Source of the DNA: Cryoendolithus antarcticus
Taxonomy: Eukaryota; Ascomycota; Dothideomycetes; Cladosporiales; Cladosporiaceae
Assembly (NCBI GenBank): GCA_002077065.1
Contig: NAJO01000022.1
Location: 310,001 to 374,000 of the forward strand
Direction of reading: 5' to 3'
Length of the DNA: 64,000 nt
Part shown: positions 35,321 to 64,000 of the stretch, in pieces
Position numbering within the stretch: the first letter of the stretch is position 1
How the letters are laid out: the number at the start of each line of letters is the position of its first letter
Notes under the pieces: generated by a model
What the model was told of the DNA's origin: nothing
The model's database searches: none
Seen by the model: the letters and a program-made list of their open reading frames with translations, nothing else
Program-made: the position numbers and the translations under genes

Positions 35321-37186
35321 ATGTCAAGCCTGCGACATGCCGCAGATGACGGGCACCTCAGACTTGGGCCAGCTGCAGAACGCCTTGGTTGCTCTGGTGT
35401 CACTGAAAAGGGCCCGCCTGCTGCACTTCTCCGCCGTGCTGCCACACGCTCCTTGCCTGACCTTCGTGGCAAGCAAAACAAACGAGTCAGCTTTCGACGA
35501 CGCTGTGCTAGCAGTGGCGAGGACGACATGAAACTGTCAGTGGATGAATATGAAGCATTGCCAGTCTCCGTTCGGTATGTATACTTACGCTCCACCGCTG
35601 AATACCCTTTCCCTTCAGCTGTGTGTCGCTGGACACAATTTGCTCGTTTCAAGAAGCCTCGACTCTGCAGAAGAGCGGTCAGGCAGGCGACATGAGGATA
35701 GCAGTCGTTCACGCAAGCAGGCCCATCACACTGAACCCACTGCTATCGACATCCCTATGTAGCAAACGCTGATTCGCATCACAGGCGGAAGTACTTCTCC
35801 CAGCATGAGCGCCTCCAGATCGTGCAATGGCACGCCGCCGAGAAACGCTCAAGAACACGGCCCAAGAGCTCGTGGCTCGATCCTCCGTCTCCGATCGAAG
35901 AGCCAATCAGACACGACAGTGTTGTCGACTCGTCCATTTCCAATCCGACATTTCCAGTGACCCATTCGACCCAGAACTTACTACAGTGCGACGTCCCTGG
36001 CACTAACACTTCGTGGTACCTCGCATTGCCGGAGAAAGTGAAGAAGCAGCGCTTTAGTCCGGAAGAGCGTGCTCTACTCGCTGCGGGTTGCGAAGCAGGA
36101 GCAGCTTATCAAGCACCGTGGCTTGCAACATCACCTGCTGTCGACGCGTTCCGTTTCACTAGACCCGTGTCTTCTGCGTGTGCCCGGCGGCAGCCGTCAG
36201 TAAGCTCTTCTGAGATCCTTGACGATTCCGACGACTCCACCAGCGCGCCCCGATTGGCTTCGGCGCAGGGTATGCGACAGCTGGAGACTGGTGAGGTGGC
36301 AAAAGTCACAATGCTCAGACCAAGGTCACGACGTCAGTCAGAGCCCGCACGCTGCGCACAGGCGGTCTCACCACCGGCTTACATGGCGATTGGAACCGCT
36401 AAAGAGCGACGCAAGAGGTCCTTCCGTCGCTCATTCGCACTCCGACCGTTGCCACTCCCAGCGCCTGCGCTCACGCCGTTGCCCTCGGTGCCAGATTTCG
36501 CAACTTCGGCTGAGCTTGAACCAATCAAGACGCCTCGCAAGCTGTCTCGCAAGTCGATGAGCAACGACAGCGAGCTCGCGCCCGATGCTCAATACTTCCA
36601 CAGCCCGGAAGTACGCCAAACTCTACGTTCCCTGGCCTCGCCTCAGCTTTTCGACGAAGCCGTCAACTTTGGTTTCCCAGTCGTGGACGAGCTTGCTGCC
36701 CTGCCCTCCACTGCAGATACCTCAGATCATGCTCGGAAATGCTCTCTTACCTTCAGCTCTTCCGGTGAGGAGAGCACGATGCCCAACAGCCCTGTCACTC
36801 CCGCGAGGTCGATCTTCGGCGATACTACGATGTTCATCGATCACCCTTCTTCGCTACACTCGAGCTCCAGTGCTTCGATGCGACAAATAGCAGAAATGAG
36901 CGAGAAGACTCCGGATCATTTTCGCTCGCTCTCGATCTCCAATAGGGAAATGACACTTCGGATGACGCTCACGAGGCCTGATCTTAGACTGCCAGACGTG
37001 CACTCGTACAGCTCGGAGGGACACAGCCCCACTGAGAAGATCGCATTGCGCGATGATCCACTAGCGTTGCGGGAGCTGCCCGTATGCGATGATCCGACTG
37101 GTTCTCATGGAGCCTTTGCTGTTGTCGACGCACCGCCTGCCAGAAAGGGATTGAAGAAAGTGTGGAAGGGATGGAGGAAGCGCTGA
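35321..37186 (+). CDS. Conserved fungal hypothetical protein with RKYF/KQRF repeat motif
   Basis: Two exons, 35321..35574 and 35785..37186, give 551 aa. The 210-bp intron has donor GTATGT, branch GCTGAT and acceptor CAG. Joining them completes a motif ALPVSVRRKYFSQHERLQI. A related copy occurs about 65 residues later (ALPEKVKKQRFSPEERALL). Near the middle is YFHSPEVRQTLRSLASPQLFDE followed by FGFPVVDE; near the end are NREMTLRMTLTRPDLR and a basic tail (KKVWKGWRKR). I recall similar proteins across Dothideomycetes with no known function. Most of the chain is Ser/Pro-rich and probably disordered. No signal peptide is present. The start codon is the least certain part. Confidence 0.7.
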
Positions 37187-37448
37187 CCGATCACGCAGAG
37201 GAATTGGGTGCAGGGATCGAATTGTAAGATGTCTCGAGCACGCGGTCAAGTGCTAGCTGCGTCTACTTCTGCGACGTGTACATGTACAAACATTGCAGCC
37301 CGGCAAGGGTCATTGAGGGTTCGTCGACAATTTCGTCGCGAATAGGCTTGACGTAGATAGCAGTATATGATACCCCAGTTTACCTTCGAGCGTAAATGCT
37401 TTTCTTATATACGTCAAGTTGCACTCAAGATACCGTAGCAACGTCACA

Positions 37449-39277
37449 TCAGAGCTTCGTCGATTGCGCAGCCTCCTGCTCATCCCCCTCGAGCACGCTC
37501 TCGAACCTTTGCCTCCACTGCTCCACAAGCACTGGGTCAATCCTGGTCACATCCACACTGACGTTCGCCCATAAGCCATCCTCTGATCCGCCAACGCCCA
37601 CCAAGAATTCGCCTTCCCTCGCTCTCACGCCGGCGTTCGAGTGTCTGAAGTCAGCAGCGAAGTCCTTACCGTCCCTCTTCGCAGCCTCCAGGTCATACAT
37701 TCCTCTCAGCGTAGCCTGTTTCCCTACACTACTGACGCCGCAAGTTTGTACTGTGGCATTTGGTCGCATTGAATACGCGCCTTGAGGTCCAGGACCTGGT
37801 CGTCGGTGTTCAGGTGGGAGGATCAAATTTATTCGTTCGAGGCTCGAGAGGTATTGGATTGCCAAGACACGGCCGGGACCGCGAGAAGACATGTAGTGGA
37901 GGGCTGAGGTTTGCGAGGGCAGCCGAGTACGCTTCTGGTACGAAGAGAGTTGAGCGTCGGCACGGCGAGCAAGGATGCGGAGACGGCCTGCTAGGGGAAG
38001 GTGAGACGGAAGGAAGGGAAGCAGAATGCCGTCGGAGAAGGCGAGCATGAGGCTGTTGGGTTTGCCGGGGTGAGATAGAAAGCTGAGATGTGGGACGTCA
38101 GGCGATCTCGTGTGAAAGGTGCTGAGATTGGGAAAGGAGCAAGAATGACTTACGGACGAGGATTTAGAGGGAACCCGGTGATGAAAGGCTCACGATTTTC
38201 AAGGGGAACGTCTGGCTCGAGACGCTCGTAGAACTCCATCATCAACAGCGCTGCCAGCGCGAAGCACCCTGCACCCACACTCACAGTAGGAGCAATGCGG
38301 CATATGTCTTGCAGTCTCTCGGTGGCCTTCCTGGACGTCTTCGCCACGCAAAGGTATGTATTGAGCATGGGTGGGCGACTGTAGTCGAGAGCCGGACTAT
38401 ATACCGAGGACAAAGTGGTAGCACTAGTGGGTATACTCTTACGAAGTAACGGGTTCGGGAAGCCCGCAGGAAGAGGCGATCGGACATGTCGCAGGATCCG
38501 AGTCAACAGCCAGTACCATCTTTGCCGCGCTCGAGAGCCGGAGACCGGAGGGTAGAGGCTCTCTTGTGGCAACGGTAGGGACGTTTGCCACTGTACTGGG
38601 CGGATTGCATCGTTCAGCTGTGATATCAGACCTGGAGGTGGGACGTTGAGGAGCTTGATGAACTCTTGTAGCCAGACGTGATTGCTCAGTCCGTCCTGTA
38701 TCTGGTGGCTTCCGATCAGGGCGAACCGCAGCATGGTTTCACCAGTGACTTGGACATCAACAGGAAAGACGAAGAGCTTCATCAGGCATCGGTCGGCATC
38801 GACTACACGAGCACAATTCTGTGCATGCAAGTAGAAGTCGAAAGCATCGACATCAGTGAAGTGATCGTCCAGGAAAATGATACTCCCTCCAGTCTGAGCG
38901 ATCGCATCTTGTGCACTACTCGGTAAGTCGATAGCGAAGTAGACGTCCTGATCAGATCCGGCAGCATAAGGCATCCAGGTCGCTCTTTTGACAGCTCTCG
39001 AGCGGATCAATGGGTTCTGGCACCCCAATGTCGCCCACGCGAGCCGGATCCTGTCATGCAACGCGTCCTTTGAGAGCGTCGAATGTATCGAGAGATCGAG
39101 TCGTATATTCATGTCTGCTCGCCCTTCGTAGTATCGCCCATCAGTGTCGAATGTAAGTTCCACAAGGCCCAATGGCCGGTGAAATATCGTTCGACCATCG
39201 TGAAGAGAGCTTTGCCACCTGTAATGCTCCTTGTTGCCGTAAAGATCCAGCCAGTGGTTCTGTTTCACGGCGGTCAT
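37449..39277 (-). CDS. Condensation-like acyltransferase (15-O-acetyltransferase/Tri3-like fold)
   Basis: Two exons, 39277..38154 and 38082..37449, give 585 aa. The 71-bp intron has donor GTAAGT, branch CTGAC and acceptor CAG. The junction restores NPRPFLSHPGKPNS before LMLAFSDGILLPFLPS, a block typical of this fungal family. The catalytic HxxxDG motif is GSHQIQDGLSNHVW (about residue 195). The family belongs to the chloramphenicol-acetyltransferase/condensation superfamily and includes enzymes that acylate secondary metabolites. Substrate is unknown; no polyketide or terpene synthase is in the window. It could belong to a cluster only partly visible, or act alone. Confidence 0.72.
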
Positions 39278-39617
39278 GTGTATGAGCAGTGGAAACTCTT
39301 GATAGATTCCCTGAGATACGTCGTTTCTTCAAATACGCAACCGAAGACCGTTAGCGAGGCTACCAAGAACGAATGCTGTTCTTGAAGTGCCGGCTGAATG
39401 TGAGCCGAGGTGTAGGTGCACGGACTTGGCGTCAGCTGTGTGCATTAAAACACTCCACTATGGAGCGGAGGACTTTATCAAATATGGACACGCCCAGAAA
39501 CACGCCAAAAGCCCGTCTCACCGTCAGCTTATATCAAACATCCGTACAGGCGAACTTTGTCTAGCCACGCTGTCTAACACTCAACATCGTGAACACACCG
39601 TGCAACAGCATCTGGCC
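39278..39617. other. Intergenic stretch, 340 bp
   Basis: This sits between the acyltransferase start and the last short exon of the DUF7580-like gene, both minus strand. No coding signal was found. Confidence 0.4.
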
Positions 39618-41378
39618 CTATTGTTCTGCTTGATCAATCAGATCCTTGATAGCTCGGGCCCTGCAAGAAAGTCAGCATAGGAAGCGCGACAATCGACTAA
39701 CAAGGCAATCGCGACTTACGGATCCAACAATCGGTCCTCATACTCTTGCGTGAAGTCTCTCTGCTGTATCATCCTCCGATCTTGTAGTGTATTGAGACAG
39801 AACTCCACGAAGCTTGCGTACGTCTCTCCGGCAACGTCCTCGACCGCACCTGCAATATCGCCCGCATCTAGACGTTCACCTGGAGCGTAGTCTCGCATCA
39901 CAACACTGACGCCTGGCGCGCGTGGATCGGAGCTGGCATCCGCGTAAGTCACAAGGGATCCCAACGCAAGCTCGGCAAGCACGATGCCAAGACGATACAG
40001 CTGTGTGTGCTGCCTGAGATCTCTCCTGCGGTTGGAGGCTTGGCTAGAGAACTGTGCAAGTGCTTGCGTCACATTACGATTGCCAGGAGCCGCTGCGAGC
40101 ATCACAGTCCACGCCTTCGAATCTGGATCTTGCTCCCCTCGCACGTTGCTCGAATCCAGATGATTCAGCCAAGGAGTACCGAGGAAGCGGTGACAACCCT
40201 CGACTAGAGAAACGGCAACGGCAAGCATTTGTCTAGCATTGAATCTTGGCTGACTAGCAAGCAAAATGCTGAGTGGTGAGATGCGATTCAGCGCTACTAA
40301 CGACGAGCGCTGAACAACACGAAGTTCGAAACCTTCGCCTGGCTGTGCATCCGGCGGTATGAGATCGGTGGCTTTATCGCGTCGGGCAGTTGTTGTCGCT
40401 GTGTAAGCCTCTGCGAGACTCTTGGAGGCGCGACGGATATCGCGCGCGTTCAAAATGTCGACCGGCTTGACGTGTATCTCTGTCGTGCGCAGACTGTTCG
40501 CGAGAAGGAGGTAAAGCTGTGAGGTGGGCGCACTGAGTCGACGGGCAGCTGGGTCCACTCGAGCTAGCGCGAGGTGGCAGTCCAGATTCTCGCATCCTAG
40601 GAAAGCGTTGTGCAAGCTACCAGCATCTTTGCGATTACCTTTGATAATATTACGCTCCTCCTGGCGGATTCGGACCTCTACCCGACGCCGTGCCTGTATA
40701 GGTAAGGTATGCACTGCTTCGCCCTCAAGTGTGGGATGCACAGTCAAGACGTGACCGATCGATAGTCTTTCCAATGTTGTGATCTTCTTCTCAAATCGGG
40801 ACAGCTGTTGGTCAAGTGCATCGGCCTTGAACATTACAGCACTTAGGAAGCGTTTTCGGCGGGACATGTGACGATCTACTCGTTCCATGGCTTTCTTGAA
40901 GCGAGCGGAGTTATAATTCCCGTTGTAGCGTTCGCGATGGGCATGACCTTGGTGCAGGAAGGCTGTCCCGATCATGCCATTGACTTGCAGGTGCAGCAAT
41001 TTGCTGATCTCATCCACACCACCTAGACAGTGCTGGATCGCTTGCCAGCCACGTTGACTCCAGAGATACTCGTAGAATGCATCTTTACCTCAAGGTCAGC
41101 GGTGGCCGGATAGTATGCAGTCAGTCGAGCCTCACGAGAAGTCTCATCTCTTATGCACCATCGAGACTTCCACACCGAAAGCGTTACCTCGCATGCCTCG
41201 AGAGCCTCTGCGATGTCCACAAGTCGGTAGCGAAGGTCTCGGTATCTCCCCGTAAGTTCCCAGACCTTCCAACTATAGCGAGTCAGCGATAATCTTGAAC
41301 GATATCAAGAGGAGGCTCATACACGACGTCCACCAAAGCCGAAACAGTCTTGATTGCCGTTACTACTTCTGCTGCCAT
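39618..41378 (-). CDS. DUF7580-like fungal protein
   Basis: Four exons: 41378..41323, 41272..41136, 41088..39720 and 39660..39618 (534 aa). Introns are 47-59 bp with donors GTATGA, GTGAGG and GTAAGT; the last exon is only 43 nt and supplies the stop. The N-terminus starts with a helical stretch (MAAEVVTAIKTVSALVDV), then RYRDLRYRLVDIAEAL and YEYLWSQRGWQAI. The C-terminal half resembles a degenerate kinase-like fold common in fungal DUF7580 proteins: FLGTPWLNHL, QLYRLGIVLAELALGSLV and a final helix. Relatives sit in heterokaryon-incompatibility or prion-inhibition-like families, but no HeLo domain is sure here. Function unknown. The domain name is from memory and not searched. Confidence 0.7.
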
Positions 41379-42089
41379 CCTGCTACAGTGAATAGTGGGC
41401 TTGATGCGAAGTTGTGCACGAGTCCTCCAGAATGATGAGGGGCGTGCTGCGGCAGTAAAATACTGCGTGCGATCGACCGATGTAATGATATTTGTCCCTA
41501 CAGTGAGGCAGCAGACTCAGATTGGAACAGTGAGAGCAAGAGGCAAAGGAGGCAGATCGTCATGAAGGAGAGAGAGATCACATATTACCTGATCTTGCCA
41601 AGCGTGCAGTGAGGCCGGTGAAGGTCCTCAGGCACAGCCCGGGCGCGTGGACTCGACGTCGGGACGAGCCACTGGGGCAGCTGTCGACATACGTCAATTC
41701 CAATGGCCTAAGCCACGGACTGCGGACAGTTTGGTATTGACATGCCACGCGCAAAAGAGGAGGGAAGGTGGGAGTTTGGCAGCCGAAGAGGCCGCGGAGG
41801 ACCGTGCGCCAGCTCGAACGATTGTACAGCCCCAAACACCTGCACGTCAACCTGCAGGCGTTCTCACTATCGTACCGTCCCAACGCTAATGGGACTAGGC
41901 TGCAGCCACTATGCTGGCGTGCTCAGAGGATGTGGTACTCTGCAGAGGCGCAGCAATGCCCTGGAATGATATGGTATTGGTAAGTGAGTTGTACATTTCT
42001 AATTTGTTATACTCGCGACAAATACTCCGTCGTCATCTCTTGCAAGACGCGACATCTTCTTTCCCATCTGCATTTTACACGTCGAGACC
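41379..42089. promoter_or_regulatory. Divergent intergenic region, 711 bp
   Basis: Head-to-head genes flank it, so it should carry both promoters. Overlapping short ORFs at 41578-41983 show no domain. Confidence 0.4.
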
Positions 42090-50622: not shown

Positions 50623-52215
50623 CTATGTCTGTCCGCTATACAACGCATCCATACGAATCTTCCCGAGCTCTCCATGCCTCTCAGACGTCCCGGCATGCCT
50701 GATACCATCGCGGATATCTCGTCACTTGTCTCCCCAGTACAGCTTTTCGACCTTCCCCACACCCCAATCATCGATCAAGTCAGCGAGCGTCTGGATGTGA
50801 CCCCACGTGGAAGGTATGGCGCCCTTCGGACGATGCCATGCCAACACTGTAGCAAAGACCGCGACCACTAGTGCTCCACCGGCAAGGCCGGCGGTGTATG
50901 GTGGATCCATGAGACCGAATACGTACCCGGTGTCATCGCCGTACAGTTCTGAGACACTGTTGCCAAATAGCCAATGGATGATGGGTTTGAGCAAGTACAA
51001 GCCCACGGACTGCCAAGATGTTGCGGCAGCTCTGATAGAGTTGTAGGCTTTTGGCGCGCCTGTCGCAGACTCGCGTTGACTCCTGTCGCGAGGAGAGGGG
51101 TATGCATGCCGCCAAGTCACTTCATCGCGCGAGCGATTGACGAGCATTTCCACGCTATGCAGGCCGAGAGTGGCAAATATCTGCATTGCGCCGATAAGAA
51201 GCGTGCCGCACAATAGAGACACTGCAGGATTCGTGGTGAGATATACCGAAGTAAAACCGTCTGGCCATCCGTTCAAGTTTGTGAGGGAGGTACCGATAGT
51301 CCAGGCGACGACTGCGGGACAGAGTAGCCACACTAGTAGTAGGACGTAGTGTGCGGACGGATCAGTCATTCTCAGGGAAGGCTGTACTGTCTGAGGCTGT
51401 GTTGGCTGACAGTCGGTATATTTAGTGGCGTGCGTAGAAAGCATGCAACGCTGGTCTCGATGACGAGTCCGAGGCTCGGTCTGCAGACAGGCAAGCGTTA
51501 TAGTCAGAACATTAGAGCTCCACGTCGGTATCCTTGCGCCATGCTGGTAGAAGCAAAGATGAGCTATGCCTGCCTGTGTCAGTAGACCGAACGCCATGAC
51601 CAGCAAAGCCATGCCGTTGACCATGACACCTCGGGCAGGTATCGGGCTATAGTAGCGAGGATCCGCTACTACCAGGAGTACCTGCGATGCGGCCGTATAG
51701 GTGGTTATGAGCGCAGCGCTTGAGACGCCGTTGACGTACCAGATATTGGCGGCGGAACTGTTGGCTTGTGTAAACAATCGTAGATTCGAGCTATATCTAA
51801 GACGTCCTTGTCTGTGCAACGCCCAACGCAGGGACACGGTGTGGATGCAGCCCAGGATCTCAGTGCATATCGTGATAGCGCCATTCAAGATGAGATCAAT
51901 GACTGTGCGTGAGACTGGCCCGATACCTGCGACGTGTAACAGCCAGGGAGCGTGCTCGTAAGATACCGACTGGTCTTGCTGCTTGTCACCCCTGGTGCTA
52001 GCGTATATATACATCGATAACGCGAAGCACAGCAAACTCAAGCCATAGCTGATCGCTACGCCTAATATGCATAGCTTACGGATAGAGAGGGATTGGTCGT
52101 AGGGCGGTAGCGTTCGAGTCTGCTCGGACGAAGTATGTCGGTCGGCAAGTGGCTGTTGCTCGTCCAGCTCGGCACTGTCGTGAATGACCTGTCTTTTCGT
52201 GGTAGCCACATACAT
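50623..52215 (-). CDS. Fungal multi-pass membrane protein; TGA before a conserved-looking tail
   Basis: The main frame runs 52215..50722 (497 aa, ending YWGDK then TGA). It has six or more hydrophobic helices, including a first near residue 50 (LCILGVAISYGLSLLCFALSM), and an AGTCxxP-less C-terminal loop with IDDWGVGKVEKLYWGDK. After the TGA at 50722-50724 the same frame continues for 32 codons to a TAG at 50623. This extra part includes IRHAGTSE and KIRMDALYSG, which match my memory of the normal C-terminus of this fungal membrane family (WGDKG...RHAGTS...IRMDALYAG). So the protein looks truncated by a single nonsense codon or made by readthrough. Molecular function is unknown. Confidence 0.7.
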
Positions 52216-52964
52216 CTTGGTCCATGGGTCCCATAAAGCGACGAGCGATTAGCATACCGTTGTCAATACTTGAATGATGTTGAGATGTTCAGGCGCTTGA
52301 AGGATGCGACCTGCATCATCGTGGCTGAACTCTATGAGGCATAAGATCGGCGTGTCGGGCTTCTGTGCGCCAGATGATCTTGCAGGGATCTTCTGGGAGG
52401 TGATGTTGACACGCGCTGCTCGTGTGGCTGTTGAATAGCTCGACCGTGAGAGGTGATCCTACATACTTGATTGTACCCTACAGTCGCTAGGCCTTGATCT
52501 CGCGGACCGTTTCCGTGTCGATCCCGAAAGGCCAAGGGTCAACACGCTACAACCCAACAACAGGATATCGATCCTCCTGATATGTAAGGCTTGACTATTG
52601 TGTACCTCGCTCCGCGTGTCTCTCAGTGACTTTCTCTAGTCAATTTCGCTTACGCAGCTCGGTTTACACGCGCAAAAGCGCTCTGACGAAGCTGAGGAGA
52701 AGAGTACCCACACAGCTCCGTGGTCACTATCGGACTGTATGCCATTGAACAATGGGCCGTCAGTTTCCATGGCACAGGCTACGCATGTTGAGACTTCTGG
52801 AACAAATGCACTGGAGATCGATCATGCTCGCCGACGTCTGCTGTCTTGAAATTGTTACTACAGATCGCGAACGCCTGGCAAACGATCATCTGCTGCACGC
52901 AGCCCCCGGCCATCACTACCGTACTGCAATGTCACCATAACCTGCCCTGCTTCGTAGCAGTCGC
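52216..52964. other. Intergenic stretch, 749 bp
   Basis: This lies between the membrane protein start (minus) and the 3' end of the micro-exon gene (minus). It holds the membrane-protein promoter and the peptide-gene terminator. No coding signal was found. Confidence 0.4.
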
Positions 52965-53956
52965 CTACTCCGCTGGTGCTGGTGCCGCCTCAGGCGCAGC
53001 TTCGGGAAAGGCCTCAGGCTCGGCCTCGCGAGGGTACGATCCGTAGCTGGACTCCTGGTCAGTACGATGCGCGTCCGTTACAGCCTGGGCACTTAGATGA
53101 CCACTTACCTGCCATATTTGCCGTATGCGCCGTAGTTGCCTGGACACGAAGATTCAGCAGTTGCACACCTGCACTACACGGCGTAACGCTGACCGTAGTT
53201 GCCTGCACGGTTCGTCAGCGTCCGACGCTCTCTGCTCGTGTATGATCACTCACCATAGTTGGCTCGCTTGGACTTGATGCTGAAGATAAGGTCCTCGAGG
53301 GCCGCCAAATCGGCATCCGCCTCGGCCTCAGGATTTGGCGCGGCTTCACGGACGGCGTTCTTGGGATAGTTGCTGTCTGTGCAGCAGGATGTCAGCCTCC
53401 CGGTCTGGAAAGCAACCACAGGTGAAGTGCTCTGGAAATCAGCTCACATGTGCCATATTTGCCGTCTATCGTCTGATGTTAGCCTTGTGCGCCTGGTCCA
53501 GTGCGCGGAGCAAGCGATTGCGAGGGTCTCTTACAATTTCCATACTGTTCACGCCAGGCGAGTGATTAGCGATGCTCGGTGCCCGTCGCAGCTAGGACCT
53601 TACATTTCCGTACTGCACAGCGAATGGTCAGCAAATTCATAATCGGTTCCGCATGGGAGCGCTAGACTCACATTGCCATAGCCTGGTGCTGGAGCAGCCG
53701 CTGCCTCGCGGGCGGCTAGCTTCGGGTAGGTGCCATCTGCCGGTGGTCACTCAGCATCGCTGCATGTGAGAAAGAGAGTCGGAAGCACTCACAGCTGCCG
53801 TATTTTCCGTCTGTTTGCCACAATTTAGTGTCGGTTCTCGATTCGCTGGTCCTGCCAGGATTTACTCACATTTGCCATACTGTTGCGGTCCGATCTCATG
53901 TCAGATGGCCTGTATTTCCTGGGCCTCGACGAATGGTGCGGACTCACGTTGCCATA
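52965..53956 (-). repeat. Tandem micro-exon cassette, two full and one fused copy
   Basis: Exon lengths repeat in order. Unit 1 (53956..53672) has 9, 10, 18 and 65 nt. Unit 2 (53612..53254) has 9, 10, 18 and 123 nt. Unit 3 (53202..52965) has 9, 31 and 82 nt, as if the 10- and 18-nt exons had fused. Intron phases match between units 1 and 2 at every border within the cassette. The encoded units share the order YGN, YGx, YGKYGx, YxxYP(K), then Arg-Glu-Ala. The introns have diverged strongly in sequence while the exons remained alike, implying old duplication with selection on the peptide. Confidence 0.75.
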
Positions 53957-54105
53957 CTGGGCCGGACGTCAGTTCCACGCTAGACAGGAGACCGGATTAA
54001 GTATCCACATACATTTCCATAGCCCTGTGGCTCGGCTGCTGGGACTGGAGACGCAAGTGCGCCAACGCCAAGGGCGAGCGCGATGATCGAGAAGCTAGCC
54101 TTCAT
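52965..54105 (-). CDS. Secreted Tyr-Gly repeat peptide precursor with micro-exons (candidate RiPP/Kex2-processed repeat precursor)
   Basis: Twelve exons fit one frame: 54105..54013, 53956..53948, 53879..53870, 53810..53793, 53736..53672, 53612..53604, 53544..53535, 53465..53448, 53376..53254, 53202..53194, 53139..53109 and 53046..52965. They sum to 477 nt (158 aa plus stop). The eleven introns are 51-71 bp; ten donors are GTRNGN types such as GTGAGT, one is a weaker GTCAGC (intron 10), and several show CTGAC/CTAAC branch sites. Exon 1 encodes a signal peptide (MKASFSIIALALGVGALA). The micro-exons encode YGN, YGK, YGKYGS and YGKYGT pieces; longer exons add YPK followed by an R-E-A and Glu/Ala/Pro-rich spacers, and one Lys-Arg site (SKRANYG). 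This is the layout of Kex2-processed repeat proteins and dikaritin-type precursors. It is divergent from a UstYa-family gene. The product and bioactivity are unknown; a structural or adhesive peptide is the alternative. Confidence 0.78.
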
Positions 54106-55502
54106 TGTAGCGTTGCGTGGGATCTTGATGGGATGAGTACAGCTGACTACGACAGGGACAATGAGCGAACAGTGTAGCCCACACAAGACTGCTGTCCGAC
54201 TATGTACTTCTTGCGCACAATTCTAGACCCGCGGAGTAAGACGAAGAGCTAGTGTGATGTGTCGGCACTGCTCGTAAGCCTGCTTAATGCATTCACGGCT
54301 CGCCACGCTATCGATCACGCTATCGGTTGCACTCTACGACGGCGGAGTCAGCCCTGCGCAGCAAGTTTCAAAGGAAGTTGCCCTGCCGGATAGCTACTGT
54401 GCACCTTGAGTGGTCACACATCGGCCACATCGAGGCAAACTAGGCCGTACTGAATCAGTACACTATGGTGGCGCCGGATCACATTGCCCTGCCCTGCATC
54501 ACCGGGAATACAGGTGCTCGGAGAGTAGCATGCTTGACAGCAATCAGACAGCCCAATGCCTTTTCAGCCGAGAGCATGCATTGCTTTGTGTAACATCTCG
54601 CGATGACTGGAGATATGGTGTGAGCGTGGCTTGCTCTTGCGTGAGTCGGTGGCTTGCTGATGGAATAGGTCCAGCGTGACACCGCTCAGCGAACTCGCCT
54701 TCTGTCCGGATCCGCAGTCATACGCTCGAAGGGCCGATGGTACTGATCACAAGCCTGCGAGCGCCGACCCGTGTCGCTGTATTTCCCGACATAACCCAGC
54801 CATTCCACACGTACACTCGCGAGCGATATATGAGCTGAGCCCAAAGCTTGCCTGATCTGGCGAACTCTACCCCGCAAAAGCATATTGCCAAGCAATGGTG
54901 ACAGCGGTCAGCTCGCCTTCTTTGCACTACATCTGCAGGTCCTGTGCTACTACAACCTCGTATACGCCCGATCGAGTCGTGGTAGCTGTCGTATGACCCT
55001 CTGACACTGCTAAAGTGCGCAGCTAGCAATATATCTGCACGCCGCTAGTGGTACGAGATCTTGGGTCAGCTGAACGCAAAAGCTAGACTCATCGAGACCA
55101 CAGATGACGGCCTTGCCCTTGAAGGGCATATGCAAGCGAGCAGAACACTGTCAAGTAGGCATTCAAGAAGTAAGAATAGCTGCTGCCAAATATGTGAACT
55201 CCGGCTCGATCCATTGGCGTACAGGATCTCGGCAGTCCGCATTTCTCTTGTCAGTTTCTCACTCATGCATTTGTCGAGGACCATCAACTCCTCTGGCTAT
55301 CTGAGCGTTCTCATACACCTACCGCGATATCCATAGTAGTCCAAAATTGAAATATCGGCCTGCTTATAGCGTTCAGTCCACATTCTCGTCACTTGCTACA
55401 GCACACAAAAATCGCCTCTCACGGGAAGAACAGTAGTAAACTTCCCTACTGTGGCGCGACGAACAGGAGCAATACCAGAAAGCACCGAGATCTGGAAAGG
55501 CC
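54106..55502. promoter_or_regulatory. Divergent region between the peptide precursor and UstYa-like genes, 1397 bp
   Basis: The two genes start away from each other here, so a shared control region is likely. I see no obvious palindromic Zn-cluster site or TATA box that I can defend. ORFs in both strands look random. Confidence 0.45.
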
Positions 55503-56593
55503 ATGCAGTCCAGTCTGAGAAGTTTCAAAGCCATCTTCTCAATACCACTACCACGAGAGTCAAGATCGCTGTATGTCCCACTAAACGCGGGCGACTCCTC
55601 GGAGTCGTTCGACCAGGCATCCGAGAAAGTATGGAACGGACGTTCGATAGAGGGGCTCATCACAAGGTGCCATTGTCAGCAGCGGAGGCAATCCTGGACA
55701 ACTGCACAGAAGTTGCTATGGGCGGGTGTGACACTCAGCACCATCGCGGTCCTGACTGCAGTGATCGCACTTACAATACAGCCGTCGTGCATAAGCCAAG
55801 TAGCGCAACCCTCGCCTTTACTGCATGATTTGGAGATCACATATCACAACCAGCTATACAATGGGTCCTTCCTGAAAGAGAACGTGTATCGAGGATCTGC
55901 TGGGCCGAAGACGGATGCAGCATGGGAGGCGTTGGGAGTGAATTGTACGAGGCCTGACCTTCGAAGACCTCGCAGATGCTGACATGGTCCGTAGATCGAG
56001 CAGCAGTAGTACCCGAGGCTCAAGCCGAAGCCGCTGGTATGAGTCGGGACAAAGTGCGGATCAGTCCAGAGTTTGGGGGTGGCTACCCTGCGAACGTGGA
56101 AGGACTGCACCATCTGCATTGCCTTGTAAACGATTGCATAGTCTAGACCATCCCGAGACAAAGCAATACTGACAGATACTGCAGAACCTCCTTCGGCAGT
56201 CCCTCTACTACAACTTCGAGCACTATCAAGCTCTTGGCAAAGGCGCCTTTATGAACCCGCCTCACATCGTGCAAAAGCACGTCAGTACGTCGGCCCCGAT
56301 CCCCTTTTCTTTTTGGCTGCTCCCTCCTAATCTTCCGGTCAGCCCACTGCCTCGACATCGTCCGCCAACAATTGATGTGCACCGTCGATGTCGGTCTGCT
56401 CGGCCAAGTCTGGTATCAGCCACCTGATAAGCAATACCCTGAAGCGTTTGTAGACTTCAACACGAAGCATACCTGTCGCAACTTCGATGAAGTGCGCGAG
56501 TGGGCAAGAGTCAGGCAGGTACCCGAGGAGCCGCCGAGAGATTATCTGGCGCCGCCGGAGGAAGGGCAGAGGATTTGGAATGAGATACCTTAG
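55503..56593 (+). CDS. UstYa-family (DUF3328) oxidase-like membrane protein
   Basis: Four exons: 55503..55944, 55995..56125, 56185..56284 and 56343..56593 (307 aa). Donors are GTACGA, GTAAAC and GTACGT; two introns show GCTGAC/CTGAC branches, and each join restores a family motif. UstYa proteins are membrane oxidases that catalyse cyclisation or other oxidations in fungal RiPP and some other pathways. One transmembrane helix lies at about residues 75-98 (LLWAGVTLSTIAVLTAVIAL). Then come LYNGSFLKENVYRG, DAAWEALGVNYR and GGGYPANVEGLHHLHCL with the first HxxHC, and HVTHCLDIVRQQLMC with the second. The end has FNTKHTCRNFDEVREWA. Both copper/iron-binding-type motifs are intact. It is 1.4 kb from the micro-exon peptide gene. 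Confidence 0.88.
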
Positions 56594-57932: not shown

Positions 57933-60647
57933 TCACCCATCAAGCGCCATCGGCGTCGGATTCTCCGTTCTCAACCACTCCCCATTGAACGCGTTTACCA
58001 ACCAGTCGCTCAGCTTCTCGTAAACAACGGCATTAGCGTTGTGGAAGTAGATGCTGTGATCACTGTCCGGGAAGACGTGGACGTCGTAATTCCGTACGTT
58101 GGCTTGATCCAATCGATCGAGCAGCTGCAGCGTATTCTGAAAGTGCACGTTATCGTCACTATACCCATGCATGACCAGGAACTTCGCATTCTGGCCTAGC
58201 GCAGTCATATTCGAGATCGTGGCATTGTCGTAGCCCTCGGGGTTGTGCTGCGGCGTATGCATGTACCGCTCCGTATACACCGAGTCGTAGAACCTCCAGT
58301 CCGTGACCGGAGCAACAGCCATACCATACTTAAACGTCTCACCTGCATCAGTCTCAAGCGTCTTGAGCGTCATGAAGCCACCGTAACTCCAGCCCCAGAT
58401 AGCCAGCTTCTCGGGATCAACGTACTTCATCTGCTTGAACATCTTCGCCACAGCGATCTGGTCGTGCGCTTCCCAATAACCCATGTTGCCGCGTATGATA
58501 CAGCGGTGTTCGCGGCCTAGGAAACCTGTGCCGCGGCCGTCGACCGTGACGACGATGTAGCCTAGTGTGCTGGCGACGTAAGACTGGAAGTTTATCGTGA
58601 AGCGGCGGTCGACTTCTTGGAAGCCCGGGCCGTTGTAGAGGTAGAAGAGCACTGGGTATTTTTTTTTGCCGCTGTCATCAAAGTGCGGAGGGCGGCGCTC
58701 GACAACGTTCAGATCAAAGCCTTCGACGTTGTAGGTCTTGTATATCTCAATCGGAAGCTCTGTCTCCTGGGCGAGTGTAGCAAGAGCTTTGTTCTCCTCG
58801 ATCGTGATGTCTGTCAGATCAAGGTAGTTCCCTGGAGTTGCCTTGACTTTCTGCCAAGGTACCTTCGGACCTTGATACGATAGCAGCATGAAGCCTGCGC
58901 CGTCGGAGAAGCTGGCACCGTAGTAGCCGATCTCGTTTTGGTCTGTGACGTCCTTGATGCTTGAAGAGCCAGCGTTGATGTCGACGCTGTAGACATGGCG
59001 TTCCATGCTGTCAGCCCTGGTGGCGATGAAATAGACAAGGTTGTTCTTCAGGTCGACACCGGAAGGGGCCTTAACGACTTCCCAGTTGCCCTCAGTAAGC
59101 ATCCTTGGCTCGGGATTGTCCAGAGGAGTGAAGTATGCGAGGTGATCGAAGCCGTTGTGGATGACCGTGTCGATGTACCCATCCTGTGATCGAGCGTAGT
59201 CTTTGCGAGACTCAGAGTTGGCGTTGTTTGGGATGAACGTGGTAGTCTCGGAGACCTCCATCCAGCCACCGTCAAGCTTCTGCACATCACGCTCGCGCGC
59301 TATATTGCCTGTGCGCTTGACAGCGTCAATCAGGATGAGCTTGAGTATGTCACTCTCACGGTTGGTGGAGCGCACAATCAACTTTCCCGTCTTGCCAGCC
59401 CAGAGCACTTCAGTGATCAAGCGGTTGTCATCTTCGAAGTCGCCGTCAATTGGTACCTCGAAAACCTCGCCCTTCTCCACATCATAAATCTGCAATGTGA
59501 CCACACTCATCGGCGCGCCAGCTTTGGGATACTTGATCTCGCTTGTTTCTGGGTACTTTTCCTCGCCAGGCGCCGGCTTCTTTCCCGAGGGCCGCGAGAA
59601 GAAGTACTGCACCGGGAACACAGGCACTTTGCTCTCATCAGTCCGCAGGAAGGCAACGTACTTTCCGTCGCCGGCCCACCAAGTCACACTCGATCCGGCA
59701 AACACTTCCTCCTCATACACCCAGTCAGGAACGCCGTAGAACAGGTTCGGTCCACCGTCAGTAGTGATGGCCTGCACCACATCGCTGTCCAAATGCCGAA
59801 TGTACATGTTGTTGTCTCTCGTGAAGACTACAGCGTCACCCGTCGGCGACCAGCTCGCGCTCTGCACCCGTCCATGTATGTTCGCCGGGTCCAGCGGCTC
59901 CCCTCTTTGAGACTCAACGTCGAAGATCCAGTACCGCCCAAAGCTACTGTGTCGGTACAGCTTCTCATAGTCACTCTGCACGAGCACTTTCTTGTGGTCC
60001 GCACTTGGCCACGTCTCTGAAGGGTACACAGTATTCTCGCCGACCTTGAAAGTCGCAGCCTTCATCAGTGTGCTGCTGTGTTCCTTCTGCACCTCAATGG
60101 TCTGTTCTCGGTACCGTACGTCTTCAACAACGAGGTAGTCCCTTCCCTCCTGCCCTCCTCGTTCAAGTAGTAGTCCATCCTCTCCAGCGGGTCCTGCGAT
60201 CCACCGAATAGCATGGCTGCGAGCGTACCACTTCCCCTCTAGCACCTGCTGTAACGTAACTTTCTTTCCGCTGCCCACTGTGTTCGTGGCATGCGGATCA
60301 TGAGGCCTGCTAGCACGGCTGACATGTCGTTCCTGCCCGATAAACAGGCCCAATGCAGCCAGCCAGCCCACGATCCCAATCGCAATGAGGATATAGAACA
60401 CCCGTCGTGCCTTCTTGTCGGCAGGTTTTACGCTTCGTTTCCAGGCCAATTGATCCTCCATATCCAACTCATGCTCAGGGCCGGGATGATCGCGGTATAG
60501 TGCCTCGCGTGCGGCCTTATCGGACACGTGCTCTAGTACCATTGACATCGTAGACGCAGACGACGCGGATTGTCGCCGCTCGTCCTCTTCGTCATGTTCA
60601 GCCAGTGGTTGTGACTGCTCAAAGAACACCTGATGCTGCATCTCCAT
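57933..60647 (-). CDS. dapB: Type IV dipeptidyl aminopeptidase (DapB/Ste13/Dap2 type)
   Basis: This single exon encodes 904 aa. It removes X-Pro or X-Ala dipeptides from N-termini; yeast Ste13 does this in the Golgi for alpha-factor spacers and Dap2 in the vacuole. It has a type II topology: an acidic cytosolic N-terminus of about 84 residues, one membrane anchor (VFYILIAIGIVGWLAALGLFI), then a luminal beta-propeller (DPPIV_N, with FYGVPDWVYEEEVF carrying the Glu-Glu substrate clamp). The C-terminal S9 hydrolase has catalytic Ser in GWSYGG (about 753), Asp in HGYSDDNVHF (about 830) and His in DSDHSIYFH (about 862). Length and order are normal. Vacuolar or Golgi location cannot be decided by eye. 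Confidence 0.92.
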   Translation of the reverse strand: MEMQHQVFFEQSQPLAEHDEEDERRQSASSASTMSMVLEHVSDKAAREALYRDHPGPEHELDMEDQLAWKRSVKPADKKARRVFYILIAIGIVGWLAALGLFIGQERHVSRASRPHDPHATNTVGSGKKVTLQQVLEGKWYARSHAIRWIAGPAGEDGLLLERGGQEGRDYLVVEDVRYREQTIEVQKEHSSTLMKAATFKVGENTVYPSETWPSADHKKVLVQSDYEKLYRHSSFGRYWIFDVESQRGEPLDPANIHGRVQSASWSPTGDAVVFTRDNNMYIRHLDSDVVQAITTDGGPNLFYGVPDWVYEEEVFAGSSVTWWAGDGKYVAFLRTDESKVPVFPVQYFFSRPSGKKPAPGEEKYPETSEIKYPKAGAPMSVVTLQIYDVEKGEVFEVPIDGDFEDDNRLITEVLWAGKTGKLIVRSTNRESDILKLILIDAVKRTGNIARERDVQKLDGGWMEVSETTTFIPNNANSESRKDYARSQDGYIDTVIHNGFDHLAYFTPLDNPEPRMLTEGNWEVVKAPSGVDLKNNLVYFIATRADSMERHVYSVDINAGSSSIKDVTDQNEIGYYGASFSDGAGFMLLSYQGPKVPWQKVKATPGNYLDLTDITIEENKALATLAQETELPIEIYKTYNVEGFDLNVVERRPPHFDDSGKKKYPVLFYLYNGPGFQEVDRRFTINFQSYVASTLGYIVVTVDGRGTGFLGREHRCIIRGNMGYWEAHDQIAVAKMFKQMKYVDPEKLAIWGWSYGGFMTLKTLETDAGETFKYGMAVAPVTDWRFYDSVYTERYMHTPQHNPEGYDNATISNMTALGQNAKFLVMHGYSDDNVHFQNTLQLLDRLDQANVRNYDVHVFPDSDHSIYFHNANAVVYEKLSDWLVNAFNGEWLRTENPTPMALDG

Positions 60648-61483
60648 GGCTGACCAGGGTCAGATTGGTTGCTCCGGAGTGGCATACATGAGCGTAAGCC
60701 ACAGTGTAGGTTTCAGGAGAAACAGCTTGCGGACAATGCTATACTACCATTGTACTGAGTGGAGGTTGGAATTGTACCTTTGGAGACTGGACTGGAGACT
60801 CGTGGCGCAGTCGCTACCCGAAGTGATCTGAGGTCACAGCAACGCGCCAAGACTCATCCAAGGGTCCTTTGTTGACGCGCCTTCACCAAAGACATCTTCA
60901 TTGATTACCGAATGCAGCAATAACGCACACAAGGGGACGTCTCCTCTCCGGAATCTACGCACTGCACAGTGCTCTGATCTCCGCGACCGCAATAGCGCGC
61001 TGTCCCCAACCTGACAATGAGAGACCGAATCAATCTTGTTTTACGAGGTCTGCCTTTCCACGATGCTATCGTTCTCAACTTCACTGTTGCGGTCACCTGT
61101 ATAGAAGCAGAAGAACATTTCAATTCTTGAAGAGAAGTGAAGCTGATGCGTGCTAATCTATAGACCCAGTATCGCACTGCATCTGGAATCGGTCTCCATG
61201 TGCTTTGGAGGGTCTACATGTATGGAGTCTCCGGCTTGCGAACAATACGAGCTTGTCATTAGTGCCGCTTTTCTATCTCTATGTGCAGTATAGTGTACCT
61301 CGTACCAGTTCTGTCCATGATCTCCCTCTGGAGCACATCCTGGGAACTGGTCTGCGCATCAAATAGTTGGATTACTGGAGCTGCTGCTCCTTAACGGGAC
61401 GTCAGCAGAGTGATGGTATCGGTATCGCGCTCCATCGCCGCTGGTCATGACGCCAAGAAGATTACTCGAGCATCCTGTCCGTC
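60648..61483. other. Intergenic stretch, 836 bp
   Basis: This lies upstream of the aminopeptidase start and downstream of the subtilase end, both minus strand. The ORFs here are short and without domains. Confidence 0.4.
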
Positions 61484-61760
61484 TCAATGATGCTTCTTAT
61501 TCCCTCCGCCGAACAAGTTGAGGAATCAGGTCCCCAGCTTCGACAGCCCATCTGCCACACCTCGCCTGATAAGTTGCGGTATCGGACCGCTGGTCACCTC
61601 ATCGGGACTGTAGGTAACGGCAGTGTCAGCAGATCTGGGAGTGTCTTCGAGGTCTTGCAGAGAGCGGCTGTGCTTCTTCCTCCCGCCGTGAAAGAGGTTG
61701 AGGAACCAGGTCGCCAGCTTCGCCAGCCCGTCAGCAGCGCCGCGCTCCAGGAGGGTCGTT
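61484..61760 (-). repeat. Two copies of an ADGLxKLxTWFLNLF motif at the subtilase C-terminus
   Basis: The first copy is at about 61680-61755 within the subtilase. The second spans the annotated stop: ADGLSKLGT, TGA at 61526-61528, then FLNLFGGGNKKHH and a second TGA at 61484-61486. The Trp codon of copy 1 (TGG) is TGA in copy 2, a single base difference. The frame stays open for 13 more codons past it. Confidence 0.75.
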
Positions 61761-63190
61761 CCTGGGATATCGTGATCGGCAGATATTACGATGTCGTCGA
61801 AGATTCTGAAAGCCACACTGTTAGTCTCCACCTGCGCGCCGCGGCTATGATGATGCTTGTGCTTACCGAGTCCCTGCAACCACGCCACAAGACTGTTGAA
61901 CCCCTCCCCAATGCCCCTCCTCTTCACCCCGATGAGTCCGCTCGGGGTACCACCTAGCACCCCGTTATTAGCCAATACCGTGCCGTCAGCTCTCGGTAAT
62001 CCTTGCATGCGGATCCACTCCTTCATCTTCGCCGGATCATTAGCAAGCGTAGTGTTTGCCATCGCGTAGGCGACGATCCCAGTGACATGTGGTGTAGCCA
62101 TGCTAGTTCCAGATAGCACGTTGACCATATCCGGCGCACCGAGCCAGGCGGAGATGATGTCCTCGCCTGGTGCGTATACATCAACGCAATCCCCAAAGTT
62201 GCTGAAGGAACTACGCTCGCCCGTAATCCCGACGGAGCCGACTGTGATTGCGCCGCCATGGGTACCACCGGACAGAGAAGGAGAGGTAGAGCAAGCATCC
62301 TCGCCTGCATTGCCAGCTGCCACGACAGCGTGAACACCCGCCGAGATGGCTGCCGAGACGGCTGTGTCTATCGCCGTCACTGTGCCGCCTGAGGCAAGTG
62401 ACATGCTGAGCACGGAGCCAGTGTGGCCGAAGTAAGACTTGCGTTTGTCGTGTTGCTGGATCACCCAGTCGATCCCTGCGACGACATTGGAAGACCACCC
62501 GGAGCCTGTGCCGCTCAGCGCGCGCACGCCGAAGACGTTGGCATTCGAGGCAACACCTAGAGTCTCGCCTGCGGCTGTGCCGGCCACGTGCGTGCCGTGG
62601 CCGTCTACTACGGTCATGTTGTTGTCATACGACCAGGGTTGGGACGCGCGATTGCCGAACACGACGTGCTCAGTGTATAAACCCGTGTCAATGATGTAGA
62701 TGTCTGCGCCTTTGCCGAGGCCGCCGTTGGAGAATGAGTAGGTGTAATCTAGAGCTTTCGGATCGCCGGCTGCGAAAGAGGCCGTAGAGATGCGCTGTAG
62801 TCCCCAGGGTGCCGAAGAGCGAGTGTCCCAAGTCTTGGCTGTGGTGACTACGCGTCGTTGTTGTCGGATAGGGAGGGCGAGGGCGTGGGTAACAGTTGCG
62901 GCCTGCTCTACCATGGAGACATCGGACATGTTCGCGAGCAAGTCTAGGCAATGTGACTTCATGCTTGCAGCGAAGCCGATGAAGGCGCTGTTGTTGAAAA
63001 CATGGCGGACATCGGGGTGGGACTCGTTAAGCTCGAGACGTTGAAGAACTTCTGCCACTCGAGGTGGAGTGGGATGGTTCTTGTCGATGATAACGATGTG
63101 TTCTGCGCCGCCGGACCGATGCGAGGTCTCTGCTACGGCTTGCGTGCAGGCGCAGGCCGCGAAGGCGGTCAAGTATGCTAATAACTTCAT
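61526..63190 (-). CDS. Secreted subtilisin-like serine protease (S8, proteinase K-like) with C-terminal extension
   Basis: This single exon encodes 554 aa. A signal peptide (MKLLAYLTAFAACACTQAVA) is followed by an I9 propeptide (HIVIIDKNHPTPPRV to about 110) and a proteinase K-type catalytic domain from about residue 130. The triad is Asp in IYIIDTG (about 168), His in GHGTHVAG (about 200) and Ser in SGTSMATPH (about 360). The oxyanion Asn is in AAGNAGED. A 150-residue extension after the catalytic domain contains a repeat: GAADGLAKLATWFLNLFHGGRKK, and at the very end GVADGLSKLGT, where the frame stops at a TGA in place of the Trp codon. It likely degrades extracellular protein. The short His/Lys-rich pieces in the extension have no known role. 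Confidence 0.9.
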   Translation of the reverse strand: MKLLAYLTAFAACACTQAVAETSHRSGGAEHIVIIDKNHPTPPRVAEVLQRLELNESHPDVRHVFNNSAFIGFAASMKSHCLDLLANMSDVSMVEQAATVTHALALPIRQQRRVVTTAKTWDTRSSAPWGLQRISTASFAAGDPKALDYTYSFSNGGLGKGADIYIIDTGLYTEHVVFGNRASQPWSYDNNMTVVDGHGTHVAGTAAGETLGVASNANVFGVRALSGTGSGWSSNVVAGIDWVIQQHDKRKSYFGHTGSVLSMSLASGGTVTAIDTAVSAAISAGVHAVVAAGNAGEDACSTSPSLSGGTHGGAITVGSVGITGERSSFSNFGDCVDVYAPGEDIISAWLGAPDMVNVLSGTSMATPHVTGIVAYAMANTTLANDPAKMKEWIRMQGLPRADGTVLANNGVLGGTPSGLIGVKRRGIGEGFNSLVAWLQGLGKHKHHHSRGAQVETNSVAFRIFDDIVISADHDIPGTTLLERGAADGLAKLATWFLNLFHGGRKKHSRSLQDLEDTPRSADTAVTYSPDEVTSGPIPQLIRRGVADGLSKLGT

Positions 63191-64000
63191 GATGGTCGTA
63201 ATGAGTGCCGTAGCGCTATCGAAGCGCTGTTACTGCAGTAGCGAATGCTGATCGTGCCTGCACGATTAGTATGATATAATATTGGTGATCAGAGCGAGCG
63301 TATGTAGATTAGCGACTAGAAGCGAGAGCTTGAGACCGTGAAATGAAAGAGCGAAAGACAATAGGGACAAAGACAATAGACAAAGAGACACAATAGCGAT
63401 GCTGAGGAGATGGTGAACGAAAGGTCGCCTCGCGTTCACCTTCTGTATGCCTGCAGTCAGTGAGACCGCCGCCATGGCCAGTCACTAGGGGTGTTGAGGA
63501 GTGCTCCCGGCCGTCGCAAGCAACACGCGCCAGTGCCAACCTGACACCGCGATGCGACGGTTCAGCTGCGGCCCATGGCCTGTGTGAAAGCTTTCTTGTG
63601 GTGCAGCTTGACTTGACGTGCTATTATTCTGTACCTGCGACCAATTGGCAGATCTGAAACGCCTTGGCCGAAACACGCCGGGCGCTGTCAGTCGGCGCTT
63701 GGGGTGAACGCGTTCCACGCGACCGGGAGTCTAGACACGATGAAGCTCGGACGAGGACTGCAGGTGATACAGTACATCTGGCCCAGTAGCTGGCGCGATG
63801 TGCCTTGTGTATGGCCTGCGCGAACAGATCGATCGCTTCAACAGAGGCCTAGAGTCGGCGCTCTTCCATGCGAACTTCCTATGCGTCGTAACAAGCAGCT
63901 TCATGTTGTACATCTCCTCAAGCAGTCTGTTGTCATGGCTAACAGAAGACACGACTGCGGTGATCAAAGGTCATCCCGCTGTGATCAACACTGCTTTCGC
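63191..64000. other. Right-edge stretch, 810 bp
   Basis: This contains the subtilase promoter. A 78-codon minus-strand ORF near the edge (63731..63967) shows no recognisable motif, and could be the tip of a gene beyond the window or chance. Nothing else is supported. Confidence 0.35.

What the first reader, a model, noticed from the sequence alone, without database searches (positions are those of the whole stretch)
52965..56593. Candidate ribosomal-peptide locus: micro-exon Tyr-Gly precursor divergent from a UstYa-family oxidase
Seen: a secreted peptide gene with repeated Tyr-rich units, Arg-Glu-Ala spacers and one Lys-Arg site lies 1.4 kb from, and divergent to, a DUF3328 gene with both HxxHC motifs intact. 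Known: dikaritin-type RiPP clusters (ustiloxin, phomopsin, asperipin) pair a Kex2-processed repeat precursor with UstYa oxidases that crosslink Tyr-containing cores. Inferred: these two genes form a RiPP pathway. The precursor is unusual in having YG-repeat cores, mostly monobasic Arg-Glu-Ala borders and many micro-exons, so a new subtype is possible.
Basis: partly seen in the sequence, partly recalled or inferred. Interest (0 to 1): 0.92.

Follow-up and report, generated by a model that had tools for sequence, protein, structure and literature searches.

The report
Tyrosine-glycine peptide precursor beside crosslinking oxidase
A fungus, probably an Antarctic rock-dwelling one, carries a gene built from tiny exons that encodes repeated tyrosine-glycine peptides, next to a gene for an oxidase of a type that ties such peptides into rings and close to a gene for a peptide-trimming enzyme, which together look like a small peptide pathway not yet described.

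Summary
On the minus strand (54105..52965) lies a 12-exon gene whose inferred spliced product (158 aa) has a signal-like N-terminus and three Tyr-Gly cores of about 22 residues; seven exons are 9-18 nt. A homeologous copy keeps all 12 exons (exons 91.4%, introns 79.4% identical; dN/dS 0.13). A complete UstYa gene (PF11807, both HxxHC motifs) is divergent, 1.4 kb away.

Two additions. The Arg-Glu-Ala spacers are X-Ala/X-Pro dipeptide ladders in register with the basic site, as trimmed by Ste13 in alpha-pheromones; the register recurs in 50 further relatives (176/264 even, 59/290 odd positions). Beyond the UstYa gene sits the only membrane-anchored Ste13-type dipeptidyl peptidase I found in the genome.

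Relatives of the precursor occur in several fungal classes. In Endocarpon pusillum a relative and a UstYa carry consecutive locus tags on one contig; in Tothia fuscella both lie on a contig of the same length. In Acephala and Oleoguttula the listed pairs are on different contigs. The papers searched do not describe this family. Most likely: a peptide processed in pheromone style and modified by UstYa, a new variant of a known kind. Crosslinking is inferred; there are no transcript or product data.

The parts
52965..54105 (-). Tyr-Gly repeat precursor gene, 12 exons: 54105-54013, 53956-53948, 53879-53870, 53810-53793, 53736-53672, 53612-53604, 53544-53535, 53465-53448, 53376-53254, 53202-53194, 53139-53109, 53046-52965
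   Evidence: model; homeolog comparison, dN/dS 0.131, branch points
54013..54105 (-). exon 1: signal peptide (MKASFSIIALALGVGALA by eye), then SP-VP-AA-EP dipeptides and start of core 1
   Evidence: signal peptide judged by eye, no predictor run
53672..54105 (-). core 1 GYGNYGNYGKYGKYGSYGTYPK (22 residues), coded by exons 1-5, then LAAR and ladder EA-AA-AP-AP
53254..53736 (-). core 2 GYGNYGNYGNYGKYGTYSNYPK (22 residues), exons 5-9, then NAVR, ladder EA-AP-NP-EA-EA-DA and pro-region ending in the only Lys-Arg
52965..53376 (-). core 3 (A)NYGNYGNYGAYGKYGSYGSYPR (22 residues plus Ala), exons 9-12, then C-terminal ladder EA-EP-EA-FP-EA-AP-EA-AP-AP
55503..56593 (+). UstYa-family oxidase, exons 55503-55944, 55995-56125, 56185-56284, 56343-56593; 307 aa; HHLHC and HVTHC; hydrophobic N-terminal segment (by eye)
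57933..60659 (-). type II membrane dipeptidyl peptidase, DPP IV family (Ste13/DapB-like); GWSYGG, DWVYEEE; the only membrane-anchored DPP IV found in the genome

Best explanation
This is a small peptide pathway. SHOWN: a precursor with three Tyr-Gly cores is encoded by a 12-exon gene under purifying selection; a complete UstYa gene lies beside it; a Ste13-type peptidase gene is the next sizeable conserved gene beyond that; X-Ala/X-Pro ladders run in register with basic sites across the precursor family. INFERRED: the precursor enters the secretory pathway; Kex2 or a related endoprotease cuts after Lys-Arg or single Arg; a Ste13-type peptidase strips the dipeptides up to the core; carboxypeptidase trims the basic C-terminus; the membrane-bound UstYa protein, in the same compartment, oxidises the Tyr-rich cores, probably crosslinking Tyr residues. 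The product would be a set of about 22-residue Tyr-Gly peptides, exported for signalling, defence or surface function.
For: Gene models and constraint. UstYa identity. Ladder register, counted without asking for a ladder: 18 relatives (32 sites in 16 of them), even 103/147 against odd 42/168; 50 new relatives (58 sites in 41 of them), even 176/264 against odd 59/290, p 6e-29; control 120 UstYa proteins (63 sites in 61), 8/101 against 9/151. PF00930 gave 4 matches, read as two loci in homeolog pairs; of the two loci, only the one here has a membrane anchor in the copy whose N-terminus I read. A Kex2-type gene pair is elsewhere (PF01483, 2 matches). Endocarpon pusillum: precursor relative GJ744_000526 (P0148) and UstYa GJ744_000525 (P0107), both on a 107,020-base contig. 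Tothia fuscella: P0179 and P0073 both on a 368,983-base contig. PF11807 gave 9 matches, read as 3 loci in homeolog pairs, so chance adjacency of a given gene is about 0.06% (with 18,781 genes from PMC5502844). The precursor protein matched nowhere else in the genome, other UstYa loci included (8 of 8 matches on C65 and C59 at E up to 10). [quoted passage not shown]
Against: No RNA, peptide or mutant data. Listed pairs lie on different contigs in Acephala macrosclerotiorum (848,192 and 377,916) and Oleoguttula (17,415 and 26,588); in Rachicladosporium CCFEE 5018 the tags (07261, 06508) are not consecutive and no contig is shown. The homeologous block is collinear over a longer stretch, so conservation of the pair there is not independent evidence of a functional link. 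The UstYa relatives are broad and their tree partly follows taxonomy, which could mean a role unrelated to this precursor. Two of the 120 UstYa hits shown are named for cyclochlorotine biosynthesis, a non-ribosomal product (its nature recalled). The Ste13-type gene is probably a general enzyme (recalled), and its closeness was noticed after the fact. On the window precursor alone the register is not significant under the strict rule (one site, 4/4 against 3/5, p 0.44), and the relatives were found with a profile made of ladder-bearing sequences, so they are not an unbiased sample. Two of the three internal borders in the window copy lack a dibasic Kex2 site.
Confidence: 0.5

Rival explanations
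1. The precursor yields linear, unmodified Tyr-Gly peptides trimmed by Kex2, Kex1 and Ste13 like alpha-pheromones, acting as signals; the neighbouring UstYa serves another pathway.
For: Ladder register; Ste13-type gene nearby. Le Marquer 2019 (PMC6339444, passages and section 10) says the Ste13 signature in Ascomycota is generally dedicated to alpha-pheromones; the abstract of Umemura 2020 (PMC7329392) says that almost all pheromone precursors, with three exceptions, lack a DUF3328 neighbour.
Against: UstYa next door here and, by locus tags, in Endocarpon. Cores lack the Cys and Trp of known alpha-pheromones (recalled).
Confidence: 0.25
2. The Tyr-Gly peptides are structural: they assemble into an amyloid-like or oxidatively crosslinked surface layer of the cell wall, as Rep1-derived peptides do in Ustilago maydis; UstYa, if involved, cures the layer.
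For: Seven Tyr per 22-residue core, mostly alternating with Gly. Rep1 amyloid-like fibrils are mentioned in PMC9769878 (passages read).
Against: Cores are bounded by processing ladders, as expected for released peptides; no structural data.
Confidence: 0.18
3. Chance neighbourhood of three unrelated genes: a repeat secreted protein, a conserved oxidase and a general vacuolar or Golgi peptidase.
For: Different contigs in two of four species with data. The Ste13-type gene is probably housekeeping (recalled).
Against: About 0.06% chance of direct adjacency for a given gene, repeated in Endocarpon by consecutive locus tags.
Confidence: 0.07

Closest known systems
Asperipin-2a type RiPP (precursor plus a single UstYa homolog)
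   Same: Secreted repeat precursor with Tyr-containing cores near one UstYa gene.
   Different: Cores here are about 22-residue Tyr-Gly repeats, not short peptides (short cores recalled); dipeptide ladders; micro-exons. Of that cluster's reductase and transporter (named in PMC12048977, section 21), neither was among the ORFs scanned near the pair; the one MFS gene found in the window (2135-3901) is about 50 kb away.
Ustiloxin/phomopsin dikaritins
   Same: UstYa family member with two HxxHC motifs; signal peptide; repeats.
   Different: No tyrosinase or methyltransferase among 20 proteins scanned; one UstYa rather than two or five (numbers from PMC7329392); no EDYxI core (motif from PMC6339444).
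Ascomycete alpha-pheromone precursors
   Same: Signal peptide, repeated cores, basic cut followed by X-Ala/X-Pro ladders for Ste13.
   Different: Core sequence unlike pheromones (recalled); UstYa neighbour, which pheromone precursors almost never have (PMC7329392).
KEX2-processed repeat proteins (KEPs; Le Marquer 2019, Umemura 2020)
   Same: General architecture; many relatives of this precursor carry dibasic sites.
   Different: Window copy has one Lys-Arg only; the Tyr-Gly family is not among the conserved motifs named in the sections read; supplementary tables were not read.

Membership tests
KEX2-processed repeat protein (KEP) | N-terminal signal peptide | tested here: inconclusive
   Hydrophobic N-terminus ending ALA judged by eye; no signal-peptide predictor run
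KEX2-processed repeat protein (KEP) | Repeated, nearly identical peptide cores | tested here: met
   Three Tyr-Gly cores of about 22 residues
KEX2-processed repeat protein (KEP) | Dibasic (KR, RR, KK) site between the cores | tested here: not met
   Only one Lys-Arg in the window copy; other borders single Arg. Many relatives carry KR, RR or KK. Filed as a homolog of such proteins, not a strict member
Ste13-signature (alpha-pheromone-like) precursor | X-Ala/X-Pro dipeptides in register after the basic site | tested here: met
   Family-wide; in the window copy seen at three sites, but not significant on its own under the rule
Alpha-pheromone | Known pheromone core sequence | tested here: not met
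   Core is a Tyr-Gly repeat; no Pfam match for the precursor; not compared with pheromone sequences directly
UstYa family (PF11807, DUF3328) | Domain above curated cut-off and two HxxHC motifs | tested here: met
   177.3 bits against cut-off 25; HHLHC and HVTHC
Dikaritin RiPP | Precursor gene beside a UstYa gene | tested here: met
   homeolog; Endocarpon
Dikaritin RiPP | Tyrosinase and methyltransferase in the cluster (Ding 2015 criteria as cited in PMC12048977, which adds that working clusters can lack some) | tested here: not met
   None among 20 proteins scanned with Pfam; smaller or multi-exon genes not covered
Dikaritin RiPP | Tyr side-chain cyclised by the UstYa enzyme | not testable with these tools
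   Needs mass spectrometry
DPP IV / Ste13-type peptidase | DPPIV_N plus S9 domain, catalytic motifs, type II membrane anchor | tested here: met
   (motif meaning recalled; anchor by hydropathy)

The most novel reading that the evidence does not exclude
An ancient peptide system across Pezizomycotina, overlooked because gene finders break its micro-exon precursors: pheromone-style processing (basic cut plus Ste13 ladder) joined to UstYa oxidation gives crosslinked Tyr-Gly peptides, with symmetric 9- and 18-nt exons acting as cassettes that add or drop Tyr-Gly units, by exon skipping within a gene and by duplication over time.
Probability: 0.25. Interest if true: 0.85.

Novelty: new variant of a known kind. 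Interest (0 to 1): 0.62.

Why it matters
It links two peptide-processing logics that the papers read treat as mostly separate in Ascomycota: Ste13 ladders (pheromones) and UstYa oxidation (RiPPs). Named relatives of the precursor fall in several classes, so it may be a conserved peptide rather than a sporadic toxin. The deposited model in a close relative looks broken: the Rachicladosporium CCFEE 5018 protein P0001 reads what is intron 8 here as coding (by eye), and the Oleoguttula model P0002 looks garbled too, so surveys based on annotated proteins may miss or misread such genes. A 2025 lichen study (PMC12048977, passages and sections 15 and 21 read) found UstY clusters without a recognisable repeat precursor; precursors of this type are one testable answer.

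Tried and rejected
Paper searches: Tyr-Gly strings (21 papers, all listed; no title on a fungal precursor), Tyr-rich KEPs (2 papers, titles and start of abstracts only), micro-exons (15 of 1,560 listed, no relevant title), gigA introns (15 of 9,266 listed), Ste13 with RiPPs (15 of 36 listed), UstYa mechanism (15 of 111 listed). No solved structure matches the UstYa by sequence. Intron similarity between repeats 1 and 2 was tested as a sign of recent block duplication and not found: none of 5 intron pairs stood out from its shuffles, though exon lengths (9, 10, 18 nt) and phases repeat. A six-frame scan for repeat ORFs around the other UstYa loci showed none like this one, but the same scan also missed the known precursor copy on C59, so it has no power for micro-exon genes and is not used as evidence; one search is. 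A wider synteny survey was not possible: by the tools' descriptions the other genomes held are prokaryotic and metagenome scans are capped at zero (not tried). Structure prediction was not run because it would not decide the question. In one search the ladder count used 16 proteins (window, homeolog and 14 of the 18 hits; P0001, P0003, P0006, P0015 left out), dropped 5 of 40 sites with spacers of 25 or more, and required Ala or Pro in the first dipeptide, which favours the result (170/213 against 64/233); one search repeats it on all 18 and on all 50 new proteins without that requirement and is the one relied on. It takes spacers of 3-24 residues that lead to a Tyr-repeat, so 2 of 18 and 9 of 50 proteins gave no site; a few sites overlap (P0182).
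Full report
Where it is. The window is contig C65:310001-374000 of a 47-Mb assembly in 149 contigs. Best protein matches are Rachicladosporium sp. CCFEE 5018 and Oleoguttula; the published R. antarcticum assembly is 47.4 Mb in 267 contigs with 18,781 genes (PMC5502844, first of two parts read). That this is a Rachicladosporium is therefore an inference. The genome is duplicated here: six blocks between window 21660 and 63989 align in order to C59 at 83-87% DNA identity (only C59:591000-640999 was fetched, so the first 21 kb of the window was not compared).

The precursor. Reading the minus strand, 12 exons with GT..AG borders give 158 residues: signal-like N-terminus, core 1, LAAR, EA-AA-AP-AP, core 2, NAVR, EA-AP-NP-EA-EA-DA and a pro-region ending in Lys-Arg, core 3, then a C-terminal X-Ala/X-Pro ladder. 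Each core has seven Tyr. Seven exons are 9 to 18 nt. Several tests say that the gene is real. The homeolog keeps all exons; exons match at 436 of 477 positions and introns at 520 of 655 (Fisher p 2e-8). Exons of 18 nt or less match at 76 of 83 (p 0.007). dN/dS is 0.131. Eight of 11 introns carry a branch-point motif, never reached in 1000 shuffles. Unspliced frames carry 14-15 stops. Related proteins from other sources show the same uninterrupted core string, such as GYGNYGNYGNYGKYGTY in P0004. Exon lengths 9, 10, 18 and their phases recur in repeats 1 and 2, which suggests an old block duplication, but the introns no longer resemble each other. The deposited model of a relative is faulty by eye: P0001 continues through intron 8.

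The oxidase. Four exons give 307 residues with PF11807 at 177 bits, cut-off 25, and HHLHC and HVTHC. Against its homeolog dN/dS is 0.072. Genome-wide, PF11807 gave 9 matches, which I read as three loci in homeolog pairs. A tree of 42 proteins (40 of the 120 listed, chosen by me for named species, plus the two copies) places the window gene with Rachicladosporium and Oleoguttula; deeper forks are often weak (14 of 39 inner branches open) and partly follow taxonomy; the Endocarpon and Tothia proteins do not group with the window gene.

The third gene. The next sizeable conserved gene, 57933-60659 on the minus strand, is a DPP IV family peptidase with a hydrophobic segment near its N-terminus, GWSYGG and DWVYEEE, 97% identical to its homeolog. 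PF00930 finds two further matches, on C128 and C35. The C128 frame has, at its first Met in reach of the hydrophobic segment, a signal-peptide-like start rather than an anchor behind a cytoplasmic tail; for C35 only a 473-residue piece was read, not its N-terminus. So the gene here is the only Ste13-type candidate found. Two small ORFs of 97 and 114 residues lie between; their C59 counterparts are 44% and about 62% identical, the second in two pieces with a stop, so they are poor genes. A Kex2-type pair is present elsewhere.

The ladder. In alpha-pheromone precursors Ste13 removes X-Ala or X-Pro dipeptides after the Kex2 cut (PMC6339444 and PMC9769878, passages read). If the spacers here serve that, Ala or Pro should fall on even positions after the basic residue. 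In the 18 proteins: 103 of 147 even against 42 of 168 odd. In the 50 new proteins: 176 of 264 against 59 of 290, p 6e-29. In 120 UstYa proteins as control: 8 of 101 against 9 of 151. The window precursor alone gives one site under this rule, 4 of 4 against 3 of 5, not significant. Related sequences are not independent, and the 50 were found with a profile of ladder-bearing proteins, so the p-values overstate. Shown: the register. Inferred: trimming by this peptidase.

The pair in other fungi. The profile search listed 64 proteins, with names from Dothideomycetes, Eurotiomycetes, Lecanoromycetes, Leotiomycetes, Sordariomycetes and Geoglossomycetes (class assignments recalled). The UstYa search found 539 and showed 120. 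Four species appear in both lists with contig lengths. Endocarpon pusillum: GJ744_000526 and GJ744_000525, both on 107,020 bases. Tothia fuscella: both on 368,983 bases. Acephala macrosclerotiorum and Oleoguttula: different contigs. For Rachicladosporium CCFEE 5018 no contig lengths were shown, and its locus tags (07261, 06508) are not consecutive. For the other 13 named species no UstYa was among the 120 shown. So linkage is indicated outside the genus at least once, but is not universal in these listings.

What it most likely is. A secreted peptide precursor processed in pheromone style and, with moderate likelihood, oxidised by the adjacent UstYa. Crosslinking, compartment and role are inference. 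Linear signals or a structural surface peptide remain open. It is a new variant of a known kind: the parts are known; the combination, the Tyr-Gly family and the micro-exon make-up were not seen in what the searches listed (several lists were cut) or in the passages read. Supplementary tables of the two KEP surveys were not read (look-ups are capped at zero), so the family may be listed there without comment.

Noticed in passing
31943-41788: About 9.8 kb absent from the otherwise collinear homeologous block on C59 (about 85 bases there); single copy in the genome, three long ORFs without Pfam match.
   Followed up: partly
50722-52248: 508-aa ORF, membrane-protein-like by eye, without Pfam match, next to the precursor; absent from C59 (45 bases there) and single copy in the genome.
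   Followed up: partly
61526-63229: Subtilase (Peptidase_S8) gene beyond the dipeptidyl peptidase, also kept in the homeolog (89% over residues 1-543), so two peptidase genes in a row follow the pair.
   Followed up: partly
L037 (C35:248500-255500): The C35 copy of the other DPP IV gene carries an in-frame stop, while its C128 partner is open.
   Followed up: no
C59:620719-620821: Homeologous precursor uses a GC donor at intron 11 and has one extra Tyr-Gly-Ala unit in exon 11.
   Followed up: yes
9774-15935: 2053-aa ORF with PAS, protein kinase and response-regulator domains on one chain (Rim15-like by recall).
   Followed up: no
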